Shown one piece after another: positions 12,079 through 18,926 of a DNA stretch of 64,000 nt (its first letter is position 1; every line of letters starts with the position of its first letter). This DNA is from Pyrinomonadaceae bacterium. GTDB lineage: Bacteria > Acidobacteriota > Blastocatellia > Pyrinomonadales > Pyrinomonadaceae. The DNA lies in NCBI GenBank assembly GCA_030841085.1, contig JAVEDP010000024.1, positions 124,001 to 188,000 of the forward strand. The letters are read 5' to 3'. The notes under the pieces were generated by a model, which had not been told where the DNA came from, made no database searches, and worked only from the letters and a program-made list of their open reading frames with translations. The position numbers were made by a program, and so were the translations under genes.

Positions 12079-12233
12079 TGCGGCTTTGCCGCGTCCCGTG
12101 CGGAAAGGCTCTGCCTTTCCGGCACACCTCAGTATCGATGAGGCTATGCCTCCGTCGGAGGCATAGCCTCAATAAAAATAAGGTACCAACGGAAAGGCGG
12201 AGCCTTTCCGCACGGAATGCGGCAAAGCCGCCG
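12079..12233. repeat. nested palindromic repeat upstream of the FHA gene
   Basis: GCGGCTTTGCCGC and CGTGCGGAAAGGCTCTGCC on the left are mirrored by GGCGGAGCCTTTCCGCACG and GCGGCAAAGCCGC on the right, with an inner GAGGCTATGCCTCC/GGAGGCATAGCCTC pair. The 570-base gap between the small CxxC protein and the FHA gene holds this element and otherwise no gene that I can support. Confidence 0.7.
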
Positions 12234-13165: not shown

Positions 13166-13876
13166 TCACAACGCCCGGCACATCTCGGTCCATGGCGTTG
13201 CCAGCGCATGTTTCAGCGCGACGCTAATTTCCGAAAATTTCCAGCCCTTACGCTCCCAGATAGAACCATCGGCGTATTCCACCCGATTGATCAGCACCAG
13301 CTCGAGGAAGCGTTTGCCGGAGCCGCTGGCCAACGTGTTCACGCTGACCACGTCGCTTGGTCCAGACAAACTTGATGCCTGCAGATCTTTCTCTTTACCG
13401 GGTTTTATTCCGGCGCCACAAAGAAACTGGCGACGTGTTGGGCTCGACGGATTTGCCTGGTCGATAAATTGGTACTCCCAAAAAACAACATCAATCGTTT
13501 TCTTGCTGCCGTTTTGGATCTTCGCTTCGTATGAAAAGGTGTCCAGGGATTTAGGCGGCGGCGTGCGTGACTCTTGTACGATCTTTTCGATCGCGGCGCT
13601 GCGGCCGTCGATGGTGTCCTCGTTAGGATCGCGTTGTCCCACCGGCTGATTGACGCGAGCGTTTCGCTGATAGGTTTTATTGTCGGCAATCATTTCGCGA
13701 GCCGGCGTAACTCCTTCCGCTTCACCTTTGATTGTCTTCCGTATCCGAGACCATTTGAAACTAACCACCGCTATCACCGGGGTACCATTAGCGCTGACGG
13801 GTTCCTTGGGCGGCGTCGGATTTTGAGGCAGTGCCAGCAACAGCAGCAGTAAGGGCAGCAACAAAAGAGTTGGCAT
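13166..13876 (-). CDS. secreted protein of unknown function
   Basis: A 236-aa protein with a leucine-only signal segment (MPTLLLLPLLLLLLALP). The mature part looks like a beta-rich domain: FSYEAKIQNGSKKTIDVVFW and FLELVLINRVEYADGS resemble strands of an immunoglobulin-like fold, with one Cys (FLCGAG) and a second near the C-terminus (WTEMCRAL) that could form a disulfide. I recognise no catalytic motif and no family name. It stands alone, next to the left att-like repeat of the tRNA-Gly island but outside it. Confidence 0.6.
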   Translation of the reverse strand: MPTLLLLPLLLLLLALPQNPTPPKEPVSANGTPVIAVVSFKWSRIRKTIKGEAEGVTPAREMIADNKTYQRNARVNQPVGQRDPNEDTIDGRSAAIEKIVQESRTPPPKSLDTFSYEAKIQNGSKKTIDVVFWEYQFIDQANPSSPTRRQFLCGAGIKPGKEKDLQASSLSGPSDVVSVNTLASGSGKRFLELVLINRVEYADGSIWERKGWKFSEISVALKHALATPWTEMCRAL

Positions 13877-13937: not shown

Positions 13938-13982
13938 TGGAGCGGGCGACGAGGATCGAACTCGCAACATCCAGCTTGGGAA
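13938..13982 (-). repeat. att-like direct repeat, left copy (truncated tRNA-Gly 3' half)
   Basis: Identical over 45 bases to 17796-17840. On the minus strand it reads from CCCAAGCTGG through the T arm to the acceptor stem CGCCCGCT. The 5' half of the tRNA is absent: after the anticodon-loop region the sequence diverges into AATCAAAACTTTCG, so it cannot make a tRNA. Confidence 0.85.
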
Positions 13983-14065
13983 TCAAAACTTTCGCTCCTT
14001 TATTTTCAATACTTACAAGACTGCTGAGAAAGTGTGTCAGCGCCACCACGGCTCGTAAGTTTTCC

Positions 14066-15247
14066 TTAATGACAATCCAATGGTGTTGTCACGCACTGAC
14101 TTTTGTCCAACAAACATTGGAATTGGCTTTTTAGCGCAAAGACAAAATCAGGTACTGTGTAATCCTTATCGGCGTTCCACCAGAAGCCGCCTCCCACGTA
14201 CAATGGGTCGTCCCACTTCATTCCGTAATACCTCTGCATCTGTGAGATTTTTGATTTTCTGCAAATGACTTTAGGCCCCCTTCCACTAGTACTCGTGTTT
14301 TCATCACAATACGTCTTCTGAATACTACAATAACAATTCTTATTGTCGGAACATTCTTTTGAATTCTCACCCTTGCCTGCCGAGTAGCCAATCTCGCCGA
14401 TTCCGATAAACTGGTTCTTAAAGACCTCTCGCAAAGGTTTAATCACCAAGGCGTCGATCTCATGTTCATCGAGAACCTTGTATCTGCATTTGTCTTCGTA
14501 ATAACTAATCAAAACGTAATCTATTTTATCGATTGTTGTCTGGCTAAAATGTTTAATCCACTCGCCCATCGCGTTGTGCTTCCACTCCCCACAATTCGGC
14601 TGATAAGTAACGGTTAAGACAAGCGGTTTTGAGTTGGGAACCAGATCAATAACAACATCTATTTTTTTGAGTGTTGTCTCGTATTCACCTGCGAAGAGTT
14701 CAAACTTCTTCGTATGGTCGTTATAACTCTCATCCGCCCATTCGCCGTTAACTTCATTTCCCACTTCCCATGCGTCGATATAGTCTTTGTTATCTTTGAA
14801 ATGATCAATAAAACACTTTGCCCGTTGATTGTAATTCATCACATCTTTCTTCTCGATGTCTTTGGGTATTAGTCTTTCACAATCAATCATCGGATCGTTG
14901 GCTCCCGCTAGTTTGTATTCTTTGAGAGCCTGTGAGTCGAAAAGCAAACCCATCAGATAGAATCTTCTAGTTCCATTTTTGGTGAGGCTGTGAAGAGTTC
15001 TTAATTTTCCTTCATAATCAGTTGGTAGCGTTTGCGGTTGAAAGACAATTCGGAGCGTTATGGGTACAGAAGTGTCAAACACCTGCTGAAACGCGTTTAC
15101 ATCTAGATCTGGCAGATTCTCGATCGTCAGACCATAGATACGTTGTGGCGGAGCGCCCTTCTTCGGTAATACTTGAGCAATGGCTGAAAGGCACAGAATG
15201 CCTGCCAAAAACATTATCAAACCACTCCCGACCAAGTATTTCTTCAT
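14066..15247 (-). CDS. secreted clan-A glycoside hydrolase-like protein (island cargo)
   Basis: A 393-aa protein with a signal peptide (MKKYLVGSGLIMFLAGILCL..AIAQ). The sequence pattern fits a TIM-barrel glycosidase of clan GH-A: DAWEVGNEVNGEW (~residues 155-167) is the beta-4 Asn-Glu acid/base motif, and FIGIGEIGYSAGKG would supply the beta-7 nucleophile Glu, with GGGFWWN at beta-8. A cysteine-rich insert lies near ECSDNKNCYCSIQKTYC, suggesting disulfides outside the cytoplasm. The exact GH family and substrate are not recognisable to me. ATG 15247 is chosen because it starts the signal peptide directly; an in-frame upstream start at 15280 would put a charged stretch before it. Confidence 0.65.
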   Translation of the reverse strand: MKKYLVGSGLIMFLAGILCLSAIAQVLPKKGAPPQRIYGLTIENLPDLDVNAFQQVFDTSVPITLRIVFQPQTLPTDYEGKLRTLHSLTKNGTRRFYLMGLLFDSQALKEYKLAGANDPMIDCERLIPKDIEKKDVMNYNQRAKCFIDHFKDNKDYIDAWEVGNEVNGEWADESYNDHTKKFELFAGEYETTLKKIDVVIDLVPNSKPLVLTVTYQPNCGEWKHNAMGEWIKHFSQTTIDKIDYVLISYYEDKCRYKVLDEHEIDALVIKPLREVFKNQFIGIGEIGYSAGKGENSKECSDNKNCYCSIQKTYCDENTSTSGRGPKVICRKSKISQMQRYYGMKWDDPLYVGGGFWWNADKDYTVPDFVFALKSQFQCLLDKSQCVTTPLDCH

Positions 15248-15597
15248 CTCAAATCTCACTTCGCGTCCACGAATACTCAAAGCTCAAAGGGATCGACTTA
15301 AGTACGGCTTCTAGCCGGACCGGTTTGGCGTTGCCGCATCTATCAGCCACACGCTCAGTTTATCTTACGTTGTTCCGGCGATTCATTTTGTCTACGCCAT
15401 CGTCCATCAGCGACACCAGTTCGCATAATCTGCCACTACCGGAGAATACCGGGAAGTAGTCTTCACTATTGCCTACCGCTGAAACCGCTGAAACATTTAA
15501 CTTGGGCGCGAGGTAATAAGGATAGCGACCATCGTATGTAAAGTTAGGAAGCCGCAACAAGAATTTCTTTTGTCAGTTTGTTTACTTACCAATCCAA
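15248..15597. other. 350-base gap inside the tRNA-Gly island
   Basis: A leader region for the glycosidase-like gene. It contains one minus-strand frame of 66 codons (15360-15560, starting MLRLPNFTYDGRYPYYL) without a ribosome-binding site or recognisable motif. I do not call it a gene. I see no terminator or repeat. Confidence 0.4.
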
Positions 15598-16413
15598 CTA
15601 ACCTAGCCACTGTTTAGCCTTATCCTTTGCCGATTCCGACGGAGGCTTGGTGTCCTGCAGCCCTGGGGCGATCTTTCGGTAGACGGCCCGAATGACGTTC
15701 TCATCGTATTTGCCACCTGCGCGGGCCACAGCGTCCTTTATTGAGAGACCTTCTCGAACTCGGCGCATAGCGAATACTTCAGTGTGAGCTTTAGGGATAG
15801 GATCTTGTTCGACCGGAATTCTCAATTGCACAGCGATTGGCCGCGGCACAAATTCGGCGGCGTGATCCTTGATGAGCTTGCTGATGTTACCGATAACGGT
15901 GGTATTGAGGTCATGATAGGTATCGCCCCGCAATGTTCCAAACTGTGAGATGCCGTCCAGAATCGCGCCCAGAGCCATCGGTCCTAGGCCTATTGTTTGG
16001 ACTTCATACGAGGCGGACGCCAAACCTAATTCCACCGCCGCCCCTAGAATTGCGAGATTTAATTTGACGCTTGTGTCCAATTGCCGCGCACGAAACAGAA
16101 TGCGCAACCCATAACCCCAGCGCGTCTGGCTGACAACGCTCTCGGGTTTGGAGACAGGCGCCGAATCAGCGGAAGCCATCGCGTCGAGCCAGAAACCGAA
16201 TTCGTTGCCTTGAACTGACGCGGCGAAGATACTGCCAACCCCTAATTTCCCGGCGACCGAAATAGAGAGAGTCTGGCTCGAAACTCTGACGTCTCCGATA
16301 GCCGTGCCCTCATCAAGTTGAATTGGCTGAGCGCGCAAAGTGCCACGCAGCGAAGCCAAGCTAACGAGATCACCGTCGTCTGTGATGAGTGAATTGATAG
16401 GGATCCAGTTCAT
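15598..16413 (-). CDS. island protein of unknown function, paralogue B
   Basis: A 271-aa protein clearly homologous to the next gene upstream (16424-17239). Shared blocks are the start MNWIPINS (versus MEWIPTSS), VRVSSQTLSISVAGKLGVG, NEFGFWLDAMA, WGYGLRILFRARQL, LGAAVELGLASASYEV and, near the C-terminus, EVFAMRRVREGLSIKDAVA. There is no signal peptide or clear membrane span. The first ~180 residues look alpha/beta with glycine-rich strands, and the last ~90 look helical. I recognise no family. The 10-base gap to its paralogue makes a two-gene operon. Function unknown; paired paralogues may form a heteromer (inference). Confidence 0.75.
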   Translation of the reverse strand: MNWIPINSLITDDGDLVSLASLRGTLRAQPIQLDEGTAIGDVRVSSQTLSISVAGKLGVGSIFAASVQGNEFGFWLDAMASADSAPVSKPESVVSQTRWGYGLRILFRARQLDTSVKLNLAILGAAVELGLASASYEVQTIGLGPMALGAILDGISQFGTLRGDTYHDLNTTVIGNISKLIKDHAAEFVPRPIAVQLRIPVEQDPIPKAHTEVFAMRRVREGLSIKDAVARAGGKYDENVIRAVYRKIAPGLQDTKPPSESAKDKAKQWLG

Positions 16414-16423
16414 AGTTTTGCAC

Positions 16424-17239
16424 CTATTCGTCAGCTAACCATTCACCGGCTGTTTTACTGTCGGCTTTTGTCGGCTTGGTAGTATCTGAAACATCGCCCA
16501 TCACATTTGCGAAGGCCAACCGTATGGCGATGGGATTCATGTCGCCGGCGGCTGCCAAAGCGTCAATCAGCCTTTTTCCGTCTTTGATTTGTCGCATGGC
16601 GAACAGTATGGCGTGGGACATCTGGAGCGAATCTTCGTCCAACGCACTGCGAAGGAGCGTGGCGACGCGCGTGGGCTGCAGGGATTTGAGGTTGGTCTTT
16701 ATATAAGCGACCAGGTTCTTCGTTATCGACGTATTGAGTTTGTAGAACGTATCGCTATTCAAGGCTGGCCCATATGCTCCGACCCCCTCAAGGATCATAG
16801 CCAGCGCCTCTGCGGCATGCGTGCCAAAGCCAATCGCGTCAATTTCGTAACTCGCTTCAGCAAAGCCTGCGTCAATTGCAGCGCCGAGCAGGCCGTAGTT
16901 CAAATTCGCCTTGGGGTTTAGCTTCCGTACGCGGAACATTACCCGCAATCCAAAGCCAAAACGGTTGGCAAGCACTAGCCCGTTGGCAGCGGGCGTTTCT
17001 TCGTATCGATCCGAGTACGCCATGGCATCCAGCCAGTAGCCAACCTCGTTAGCTGAGACAGCGCCGGTGAAGATAGCTCCAATATTTAGACTACCGGCAA
17101 GTGTTACCGAAATCTCTTGATTCGAAACCCGCGTATCCTGGACGGCCGCCGAAGCTAGGGTCTCTTTAAACGCGTTGTCCGTGTTTGCGAGCGGCGCGGC
17201 TGCAGACGATTCGGAGGACGAGGTAGGAATCCATTCCAT
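16424..17239 (-). CDS. island protein of unknown function, paralogue A
   Basis: A 271-aa protein with a very strong ribosome-binding site (AGAAGGAGGT, 8 bases before ATG 17239), so this is the well-expressed first gene of the pair. It has the same architecture as its neighbour: TRVSNQEISVTLAGSLNIG, NEVGYWLDAMAYSD, FGFGLRVMFRVRKLNPKANL, LGAAIDAGFAEASYEIDAIG and a helical C-terminus with AILFAMRQIKDGKRLIDALA. There is no signal peptide, catalytic signature or DNA-binding motif that I can identify. Equal lengths and conservation along the whole chain point to gene duplication with both copies kept under selection. Confidence 0.8.
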   Translation of the reverse strand: MEWIPTSSSESSAAAPLANTDNAFKETLASAAVQDTRVSNQEISVTLAGSLNIGAIFTGAVSANEVGYWLDAMAYSDRYEETPAANGLVLANRFGFGLRVMFRVRKLNPKANLNYGLLGAAIDAGFAEASYEIDAIGFGTHAAEALAMILEGVGAYGPALNSDTFYKLNTSITKNLVAYIKTNLKSLQPTRVATLLRSALDEDSLQMSHAILFAMRQIKDGKRLIDALAAAGDMNPIAIRLAFANVMGDVSDTTKPTKADSKTAGEWLADE

Positions 17240-17540
17240 CGTAAGCGACCTCCTTCTAGACCAAGAGCGAGATGATTCTTTTCTTATGCTATCACAAGTA
17301 TTTACGGATCAGATAAGTCAACCTTCGCTCTTTACCTCGCCAATCCGTTTCGGCCGTCGGCTGGGGCTGTGTGTTTTCTTCCAAGGCTGAAGTGTGAGGT
17401 AATTGGTGACAACGCTTTATGTTGAATTGAAGACAAAACGGGTGGCGGATTGAAACTTCTCTGTAATGCCTCTACTCTTCACAGGCCGCCTTTGAACTGA
17501 AGATGAGAGGAAGAGGCGAAGACCATCGAAGGAGGGCACT
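17240..17540. other. divergent intergenic region of the island
   Basis: Roughly 300 bases between the paralogue operon (minus) and the 60-aa ORF (plus). It should hold both promoters. I see no convincing dyad, repeat or additional gene. A ~90-codon minus-strand frame here is the shadow of the 60-aa ORF and has no ribosome-binding site. Confidence 0.4.
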
Positions 17541-17723
17541 ATGTCGAAATATTCGTCACGCGTAGGGAAAGGAGAGGCTGACGCTGGAGGGATGCTGCTA
17601 GAGACCCTAAGCACTTCCGGTTCGCCGGGCCCGGTCCCAACGATCATCGTCGAAGGTCGCAAGATCATTGGCGTTAGAGGTAAAGACACGATTGACTCTC
17701 ACATTAAGGCGTCACCGTTTTGA
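17541..17723 (+). CDS. 60-aa protein of unknown function (island)
   Basis: A short ORF with an excellent ribosome-binding site (GAAGGAGG, 8 bases before ATG 17541), which is the main reason to believe it. The N-terminal half is small and polar (SKYSSRVGKGEADAGGMLLE). The C-terminal half, VPTIIVEGRKIIGVRG, resembles the last strands of a thioredoxin/DsbA-like fold (cis-Pro then a beta hairpin), but no CxxC is present, so this is at most a fragment. It lies just inside the island, next to the tRNA-Gly end, on the strand opposite the other cargo. Confidence 0.55.
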   Translation: MSKYSSRVGKGEADAGGMLLETLSTSGSPGPVPTIIVEGRKIIGVRGKDTIDSHIKASPF

Positions 17724-17795
17724 AATCGACTTGCGGGACGGGTCGTGTTTTCGACTCGCTAAACGATCAGACTTTGCGATTTTACTGAGGAAATT

Positions 17796-17840
17796 TGGAG
17801 CGGGCGACGAGGATCGAACTCGCAACATCCAGCTTGGGAA
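17796..17840 (-). repeat. att-like direct repeat, right copy (within tRNA-Gly)
   Basis: The other half of the 45-bp direct repeat. It is the 3' portion of the functional tRNA-Gly gene plus three bases after it. In integrating elements the intact tRNA marks the attachment side closest to the tRNA 5' end, as here. Confidence 0.85.
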
Positions 17841-17870
17841 GCTGGCGCTCTACCATTGAGCTACGCCCGC
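17799..17870 (-). tRNA. tRNA-Gly (anticodon CCC)
   Basis: Folds as a complete cloverleaf on the minus strand: acceptor GCGGGCG/CGCCCGC, D arm GCTC-AATGGTA-GAGC, anticodon arm CCAGC-TTCCCAA-GCTGG with CCC at positions 34-36, a five-base variable loop, T arm GCGAG-TTCGATC-CTCGT, and a discriminator T as in bacterial glycine tRNAs. CCA is not encoded. It is the insertion site of the island to its left. Confidence 0.95.
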
Positions 17871-18167
17871 TTGTGAGCTTCTTTTCAACTAGGAGTGATA
17901 ACCACCCCTTCCGGCGAAAGATTAGTGAACGCTCAGGCCGGTGTCAACGACCACACCGACCAGAGCAGATTTTCCGTTTACTATTTTCCATTTGTCATTC
18001 GCGGATTCAGATTGGAAGTGCAAAGATTCTTATTTGGTGGGTTCAACTGAAGTACAAGGGTGGAATTGGCTTTCGCTCCAGTTGGAGCGAGATGTTTATA
18101 GCTAAGTTAAATGGTAAATGGTAAATCTTGACGGACACGCCAGCACGCGACAGTGCCTCCGTCTTCG

Positions 18168-18701
18168 CTATTTCAAGTAGTCTTCAACTAAATCGTTCCA
18201 GCGGCCTTGCGACTTTAGAATGATTTCGATGACTTCCCGCACCGCGCCGCGGCCGCCTTTCGCCTGCGTGACATAATGTGCCGCAGCACGTGTCTCGGCG
18301 ACTGCATCAGCAACGGCAACCGCGAATTCCGACCGACGCATTAAGGGAATATCGCTCAAGTCGTCGCCAACAAAGGCAACCTCATCTTCCTCGACTCCGG
18401 CTGAACGCAAAACTTCCTCGAACGCGGCTATCTTTTGTTCGTTGCCCTGGCGCAGAAACTCAATTCCTAATTCCTGGGCACGCCGGGCCAATGCGGTTGA
18501 AGTTCGGCCGGTAATAACGCCGGCGCGCAGCCCGGCACGGCGCAGCAGTTCAAGCCCCAGACCATCCTTTGTATTGAACGCCTTGTGCTCGTCGCCGTCT
18601 TGCAGCAGCCAAAGCCGCCCGTCGGTAAGCACACCGTCGCAATCCAGTAGGAGGAGTTTGATGTGTGATGCGCGGCGCTCGATTGTGGCTAGATCAACCA
18701 T
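18168..18701 (-). CDS. kdsC: 3-deoxy-D-manno-octulosonate 8-phosphate phosphatase
   Basis: A HAD-superfamily phosphatase (177 aa, the normal KdsC size) that removes the phosphate from KDO-8-phosphate in lipopolysaccharide core synthesis. HAD motif I is LLLLDCDGVLTDGRLW, motif II falls in GVITGRTSTA and motif IV is AFVGDDLSDIPLM. The lack of a cap domain and the G-x-GG region near KGGRGAVREV are typical for KdsC, which works as a tetramer in the cytoplasm. kdsA is 2.6 kb upstream and kdsB 7.6 kb upstream on the same strand, so the pathway is clustered but not in one operon. Confidence 0.92.
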   Translation of the reverse strand: MVDLATIERRASHIKLLLLDCDGVLTDGRLWLLQDGDEHKAFNTKDGLGLELLRRAGLRAGVITGRTSTALARRAQELGIEFLRQGNEQKIAAFEEVLRSAGVEEDEVAFVGDDLSDIPLMRRSEFAVAVADAVAETRAAAHYVTQAKGGRGAVREVIEIILKSQGRWNDLVEDYLK

Positions 18702-18738
18702 TTTAAGTTGTGTTACCGAAACTGATCAGATTAGGACG

Positions 18739-18926
18739 ATTTTCCATTTACCATTTCCCATTTTTCATTTTCCATTTCTGAAATTCCCTGCCGGTCCATT
18801 CGTTTCACATTCGGTTTTCGGATGTCCCGACCAAGCTCGGCCAAAATCCTTTTTCCACTCGGCCGTTTTCTTAAGTAGACTCAAATGGCAAATGAGAAAT
18901 GGAAAATGGTAAATGGTAAATGGTTA
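18739..18926. repeat. CCATTTACCATTTCCCATTT inverted repeat between kdsC and the M1-like gene
   Basis: TTTTCCATTTACCATTTCCC plus further CATTTTCCATTT units at 18740-18778 are mirrored by AATGAGAAATGGAAAATGG and AATGGTAAATGG units at 18888-18924. This forms an A/T-rich stem of simple repeats. The same motif appears weakly at 17980-18000 and 18103-18125 around the tRNA flank. Confidence 0.6.

What the first reader, a model, noticed from the sequence alone, without database searches (positions are those of the whole stretch)
13938..17870. 3.9-kb integrase-less island at tRNA-Gly(CCC) with 45-bp att-like repeats
The 3' half of tRNA-Gly is duplicated exactly (13938-13982 and 17796-17840) around four ORFs. 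Such a footprint normally needs a tyrosine recombinase, yet none is encoded between the repeats. It is therefore a satellite mobilised in trans, a cassette left after loss of the integrase, or a new kind of small cargo island.
Basis: partly seen in the sequence, partly recalled or inferred. Interest (0 to 1): 0.72.

Follow-up and report, generated by a model that had tools for sequence, protein, structure and literature searches.

The report
Integrase-deleted genomic island beside tRNA-Gly
A short stretch of foreign DNA sits beside a tRNA gene in a soil-type bacterium; it arrived with the help of a DNA-inserting enzyme whose gene has since been lost except for a 20-residue scar, so it is a decayed member of a known kind of mobile island.

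Summary
A 45-bp exact copy (54 bp at 96%) of the 3' half of tRNA-Gly(CCC) lies 3.86 kb away, and no integrase gene lies between. The insertion is real: congeners G004 and G001 have an uninterrupted site with one tRNA-Gly and the same neighbours, and the cargo was found in no congener. The 50 bp inside the far repeat is a conserved element end shared by unrelated islands in this and another genus (leave-window-out profile: 43.7 bits; next best in the window 0.8). Those islands also carry paired GGGAC repeats at fixed distances on both sides, as expected of integrase arm sites. In congener G005 a 432-aa tyrosine integrase starts 68 bp from the same tRNA. The window's small ORF 17541-17723 holds a ~20-residue scar of that integrase type (89% identity over 19 aa). 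One arm site remains on the tRNA side and none on the far side. The best reading is an integrase-deleted island of the CIME ("cis-mobilizable element") type, probably now immobile. A related 1.57-kb island in G118 keeps both arm pairs without an integrase, so mobilisation in trans remains possible for the family.

The parts
13166..13876 (-). host gene to the left of the island (236-aa protein with a signal-like N terminus), next to tRNA-Gly in the empty sites
   Evidence: 80% identical in G004, 50% in G001, 46% in G118, next to the tRNA or island in each
13938..13982 (+). far copy of the 3' half of tRNA-Gly(CCC): attachment core left at the host/island boundary
   Evidence: exact 45-bp repeat; single copy in empty-site congeners
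13983..14032 (+). conserved element end (P'-arm-like), shared with islands of other genomes carrying other cargo
   Evidence: leave-window-out profile 43.7 bits against 0.8 for the next best place in 64 kb; alignment
14066..15280 (-). cargo: 404-aa protein with an N-terminal signal-like segment; extracellular enzyme by inspection (glycoside-hydrolase-like motifs WEVGNE and GIGEIG), not confirmed
   Evidence: ORF; no Pfam hit above cut-off; 1 weak relative in 118 other family genomes
15598..16413 (-). cargo: 271-aa protein of unknown function, paralogue of the next
16424..17239 (-). cargo: 271-aa protein of unknown function
   Evidence: absent from 15 congeners; one weak relative in 395 other phylum genomes
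17541..17723 (+). 60-aa ORF holding the integrase scar; likely a pseudogene fragment
17652..17711 (+). integrase scar: EGRKIIGVRGKDTIDSHIK, 89% over 19 aa and 77% over 60 nt to the G005 integrase
   Evidence: tblastn E 9e-5 in the window; blastn 4e-9 in a pairwise test; best match outside the genome is the G005 tRNA-Gly integrase, followed among weak hits by other integrases
17731..17741 (+). remaining arm-type site TTGCGGGACGG, 63 bp from the core
   Evidence: same distance in G118, G112 and G116; absent at empty sites
17780..17791 (+). TTTTACTGAGGA, island end next to the core; shared with the integrase-bearing element of G005
17796..17870 (-). intact tRNA-Gly(CCC); its 3' half (17796-17840) is the near copy of the core
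   Evidence: ARAGORN
18168..18701 (-). host gene to the right (KdsC-like HAD phosphatase), syntenic beside tRNA-Gly across the family

Best explanation
This is a remnant of an integrative element that entered the anticodon-loop half of tRNA-Gly(CCC) through a tyrosine integrase of the G005 type. Integration rebuilt an intact tRNA and left the displaced 3' half at the far end. Later the integrase was deleted except for about 20 codons, and most arm sites were lost, leaving cargo between two att cores. It now works as a fixed cargo island; it could move only if a new element with the same specificity entered beside it and recombined the outer cores (cis-mobilisation). Shown: insertion, shared ends, integrase scar, related integrase at the same site. 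Inferred: order of the losses and present immobility.
For: Exact core duplication around an intact tRNA. Empty sites with collinear flanks in G004 and G001. 271-aa cargo absent from 15 congeners, 404-aa cargo absent from them too, and 48.9% GC against 54-55% in the flanks. Conserved end at 13983-14032. Arm-type repeats at fixed distances in relatives, one retained here, none at empty sites. Integrase starting 68 bp from the same tRNA in G005. GGGAC repeats directly upstream of a related integrase's start codon beside another half-tRNA in G074. Integrase scar. No cognate integrase in this 98.9%-complete genome: five PF00589 hits, best similarity to the G005 integrase E 9e-10.
Against: The scar is only about 20 residues. 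It reads towards the tRNA, whereas the G005 integrase reads away from it, so the parent element was arranged differently or was rearranged. The far core is still 100% identical to the tRNA half, so the insertion is recent relative to the ~19% flank divergence from G004, which leaves less time for decay. Loss of the P'-side sites is judged by sequence only.
Confidence: 0.8

Rival explanations
1. A non-autonomous satellite that keeps just enough att sequence to be inserted and excised by an integrase supplied in trans by other elements.
For: A 1.57-kb island at the same locus in G118 keeps paired arm sites on both sides and has no integrase or integrase scar. That genome's PF00589 hits are two Xer-like proteins and two weak ones. 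G112 has a 16.8-kb island with both arm pairs and no PF00589 match between its cores.
Against: The window copy has one of two P-side sites and no P'-side site, carries an integrase scar, and its genome has no cognate integrase.
Confidence: 0.13
2. Part of a larger tandem array: the 3.9-kb piece was formed by recombination between cores of neighbouring elements, which removed the integrase-bearing one.
For: Tandem cores exist in G112 (one with both arms), G116 and G005.
Against: Clean recombination between cores would leave intact P and P' arms and no integrase scar; here the arms are incomplete and a scar is present.
Confidence: 0.05
3. Old tRNA duplication unrelated to the cargo.
For: None found.
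Against: The flanking 50 bp is a conserved element end, and G004 and G001 have a single copy with collinear flanks.
Confidence: 0.01

Closest known systems
CIME (cis-mobilizable element), as defined for ICESt1-related islands and summarised in PMC5704250
   Same: Cargo between two att cores, integrase lost by deletion, no transfer genes recognised; tandem neighbours occur in relatives.
   Different: No adjacent autonomous element in this genome; arm sites partly lost, so att function is doubtful; the parent's transfer mode (ICE, IME or phage satellite) is unknown.
Dehalococcoides ssrA genomic islands without integration module (PMC3146451)
   Same: Site-specific islands between repeats of an RNA gene's 3' end, often tandem; 15 of them lack the recombinase module and were read as possible cis-mobilizable elements.
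   Different: Those use a serine recombinase (CcrB-like) at ssrA; here the recombinase is a tyrosine integrase at tRNA-Gly(CCC).
Tycheposons of Prochlorococcus (from memory and an index hit only)
   Same: Small cargo elements flanked by tRNA fragments and moved by tyrosine recombinases.
   Different: No sequence comparison was made here; the lineage differs.

Membership tests
CIME (cis-mobilizable element) | Flanked by attL and attR of an integrative element | tested here: met
   45-bp cores plus conserved element ends
CIME (cis-mobilizable element) | No integrase or transfer genes | tested here: met
   No intact integrase; no Pfam family above cut-off in the island ORFs
CIME (cis-mobilizable element) | Derived from an integrase-bearing element by deletion | tested here: met
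   ~20-residue integrase scar; related integrase at the same tRNA in G005; the scar is short, so this is strong but not absolute
CIME (cis-mobilizable element) | att sites still functional | tested here: inconclusive
   Cores intact; only one of about four arm-type sites remains; function not testable here
CIME (cis-mobilizable element) | Mobilised after accretion with an autonomous element | not testable with these tools
   No adjacent element in this genome; tandem arrays seen in G112, G116 and G005
Autonomous tRNA-targeting integrative element (IME/ICE/prophage) | Encodes its own integrase | tested here: not met
   Only a scar remains

The most novel reading that the evidence does not exclude
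tRNA-Gly(CCC) in this acidobacterial family is a hot spot for a family of integrase-less mini-elements that keep both att arm pairs and are moved in trans by visiting integrases, a tyrosine-integrase counterpart of non-autonomous transposons. The window island is a worn member and the 1.57-kb island of G118 an intact one.
Probability: 0.15. Interest if true: 0.5.

Novelty: new member of a known kind. Interest (0 to 1): 0.3.

Why it matters
It explains an integrase-less island by showing the enzyme's scar and the matching attachment architecture in relatives, and it identifies a tRNA-Gly(CCC) integration hot spot in a little-studied phylum. The att-complete but integrase-less islands in relatives give a concrete test of whether such elements move in trans.

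Tried and rejected
Structure predictions of the 271-aa pair and the 404-aa protein gave mean pLDDT 43 and 36 and were not used. Pfam, PADLOC and PDB sequence searches named no cargo family. A scan of named genomes with the 271-aa pair and a plasmid search found nothing. A survey of named genomes through the left host gene gave only the two empty sites, because in the other relatives no tRNA-Gly lies in the fetched stretch beside that gene. The family-wide GGGAC pattern search is noisy in several genomes (many matches, or matches in the control), so only this genus, genus g29 and the integrase-adjacent cases in G058 and G074 were read from it. The repeats in G083 and G076 extend into or differ at the crossover end and lack the conserved arm; they were set aside as other events. 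An own-genome helper integrase was looked for and not found. Large serine recombinases were not searched for.

Full report
What is there. The repeat pair is as described. tRNA-Gly(CCC) lies at 17796-17870 on the minus strand and its 3' 45 nt recur exactly at 13938-13982; the match is 54 bp at 96% with flanks. The boundary falls in the anticodon loop. The window lies in a 4.69-Mb, 43-contig assembly that is 98.9% complete. Named relatives of the locus are Blastocatellia/Pyrinomonadaceae (Acidobacteriota) metagenome assemblies.

It is an insertion. In congener G004 the window's flanks are collinear on both sides at about 81% identity around a single tRNA-Gly, with the 3.86 kb missing; G001 shows the same. 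The 271-aa cargo family is found in none of 15 congeners. The 404-aa protein has one weak relative in 118 other family genomes, and the 271-aa family has one weak relative in 395 other phylum genomes. GC is 48.9% against 54-55% in the flanks.

It has the ends of an integrase element. Half-tRNA copies occur in congeners G005, G006, G007, G011 and G012 and in another genus (G112, G116, G118), followed by a conserved arm. A profile of that arm built without the window gives the window's 13983-14032 a score of 43.7 bits; the next best place on either strand of 64 kb scores 0.8, and the empty sites score -37 to -40 (the columns came from an alignment that included the window, which favours it slightly). 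In relatives, paired direct repeats (consensus TTGCGGGACGTTT) lie at about -63 and -74 on the tRNA side and at about +87 to +118 on the far side. They are absent at the empty sites; background is 0.3 per kb. In G074 four GGGGGACAT repeats stand directly upstream of the start codon of a related integrase beside another half-tRNA, tRNA-Asn-like by inspection. This is the layout of tyrosine-integrase attP sites (core with arm-type sites; established knowledge of lambda-type systems); calling them P and P' is by analogy.

The integrase. In G005 a 432-aa tyrosine integrase (PF00589, E 3.8e-25, with a SAM-like domain) starts 68 bp from the same tRNA-Gly, with an HTH_17 protein next to it. The window's 60-aa ORF contains EGRKIIGVRGKDTIDSHIK, 89% identical to residues 115-133 of that protein. 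Nucleotide identity is 77% over 60 bp. Searched across 119 genomes, its best match outside the genome is that same integrase (E 2.4e-4), and several of the weak hits below it are also integrases. The scar lies between the cargo and the remaining arm site. It reads towards the tRNA, unlike G005; arms at the 3' end of an integrase are seen in G058, so the orientation need not mean an inversion. No cognate integrase is present elsewhere in the genome.

Mechanism. The best reading is site-specific integration into tRNA-Gly by a G005-type integrase, rebuilding the tRNA, followed by deletion of the integrase and erosion of arm sites. The far core has no difference from the tRNA half although flanks differ ~19% from G004, so the event is fairly recent. 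With one arm site left and no integrase, the island is probably immobile unless a related element lands beside it.

Comparison with the known. [quoted passage not shown] Integrase-less ssrA islands of Dehalococcoides were read the same way (PMC3146451). I found no description of such islands in Acidobacteriota in the searches made, which covered open-access papers only.

What stays open. G118 carries at the same locus, beside the same left host gene, a 1.57-kb island with both arm pairs and no integrase or scar. G112 carries tandem cores, one with arms on both sides, around a 16.8-kb piece and a 66-kb piece without PF00589 matches. These keep the trans-mobilised reading alive for the family, though less so for the window copy.

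Limits. Cargo function is not established.

Noticed in passing
L064 (~9051), L065 (~5293), L033 (~4117): Other far ends with GGGAC arm pairs (and in L064 and L065 also the TTTCAACAATTACAAA arm) but a half of a different tRNA (Val-GAC-like by inspection): the att-arm family seems to target more than one tRNA.
   Followed up: partly
L028:8204-10725: In G005 a 2.4-kb piece with MerR, heavy-metal-associated and CopZ zinc-binding proteins lies between two half-tRNA-Gly cores without an integrase.
   Followed up: partly
L121 (G074), around 1350-1532: Half of a tRNA-Asn-like gene followed by four GGGGGACAT repeats directly before an integrase start codon.
   Followed up: partly
window 17969-18002, 18736-18777, 18883-18924: Interspersed ATTTTCCATTTACCATTT-type repeats forming inverted pairs; similar short matches occur at many places in this genome and in G004.
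   Followed up: no
window 12080-12231: A 42-nt inverted repeat (93% complementary, 68 nt apart) near the FHA-domain gene.
   Followed up: no
G000:C22:118417-118881 (5.1 kb left of the window): A 431-aa tyrosine recombinase on the same contig, only weakly similar to the G005 integrase; its target is unknown.
   Followed up: partly
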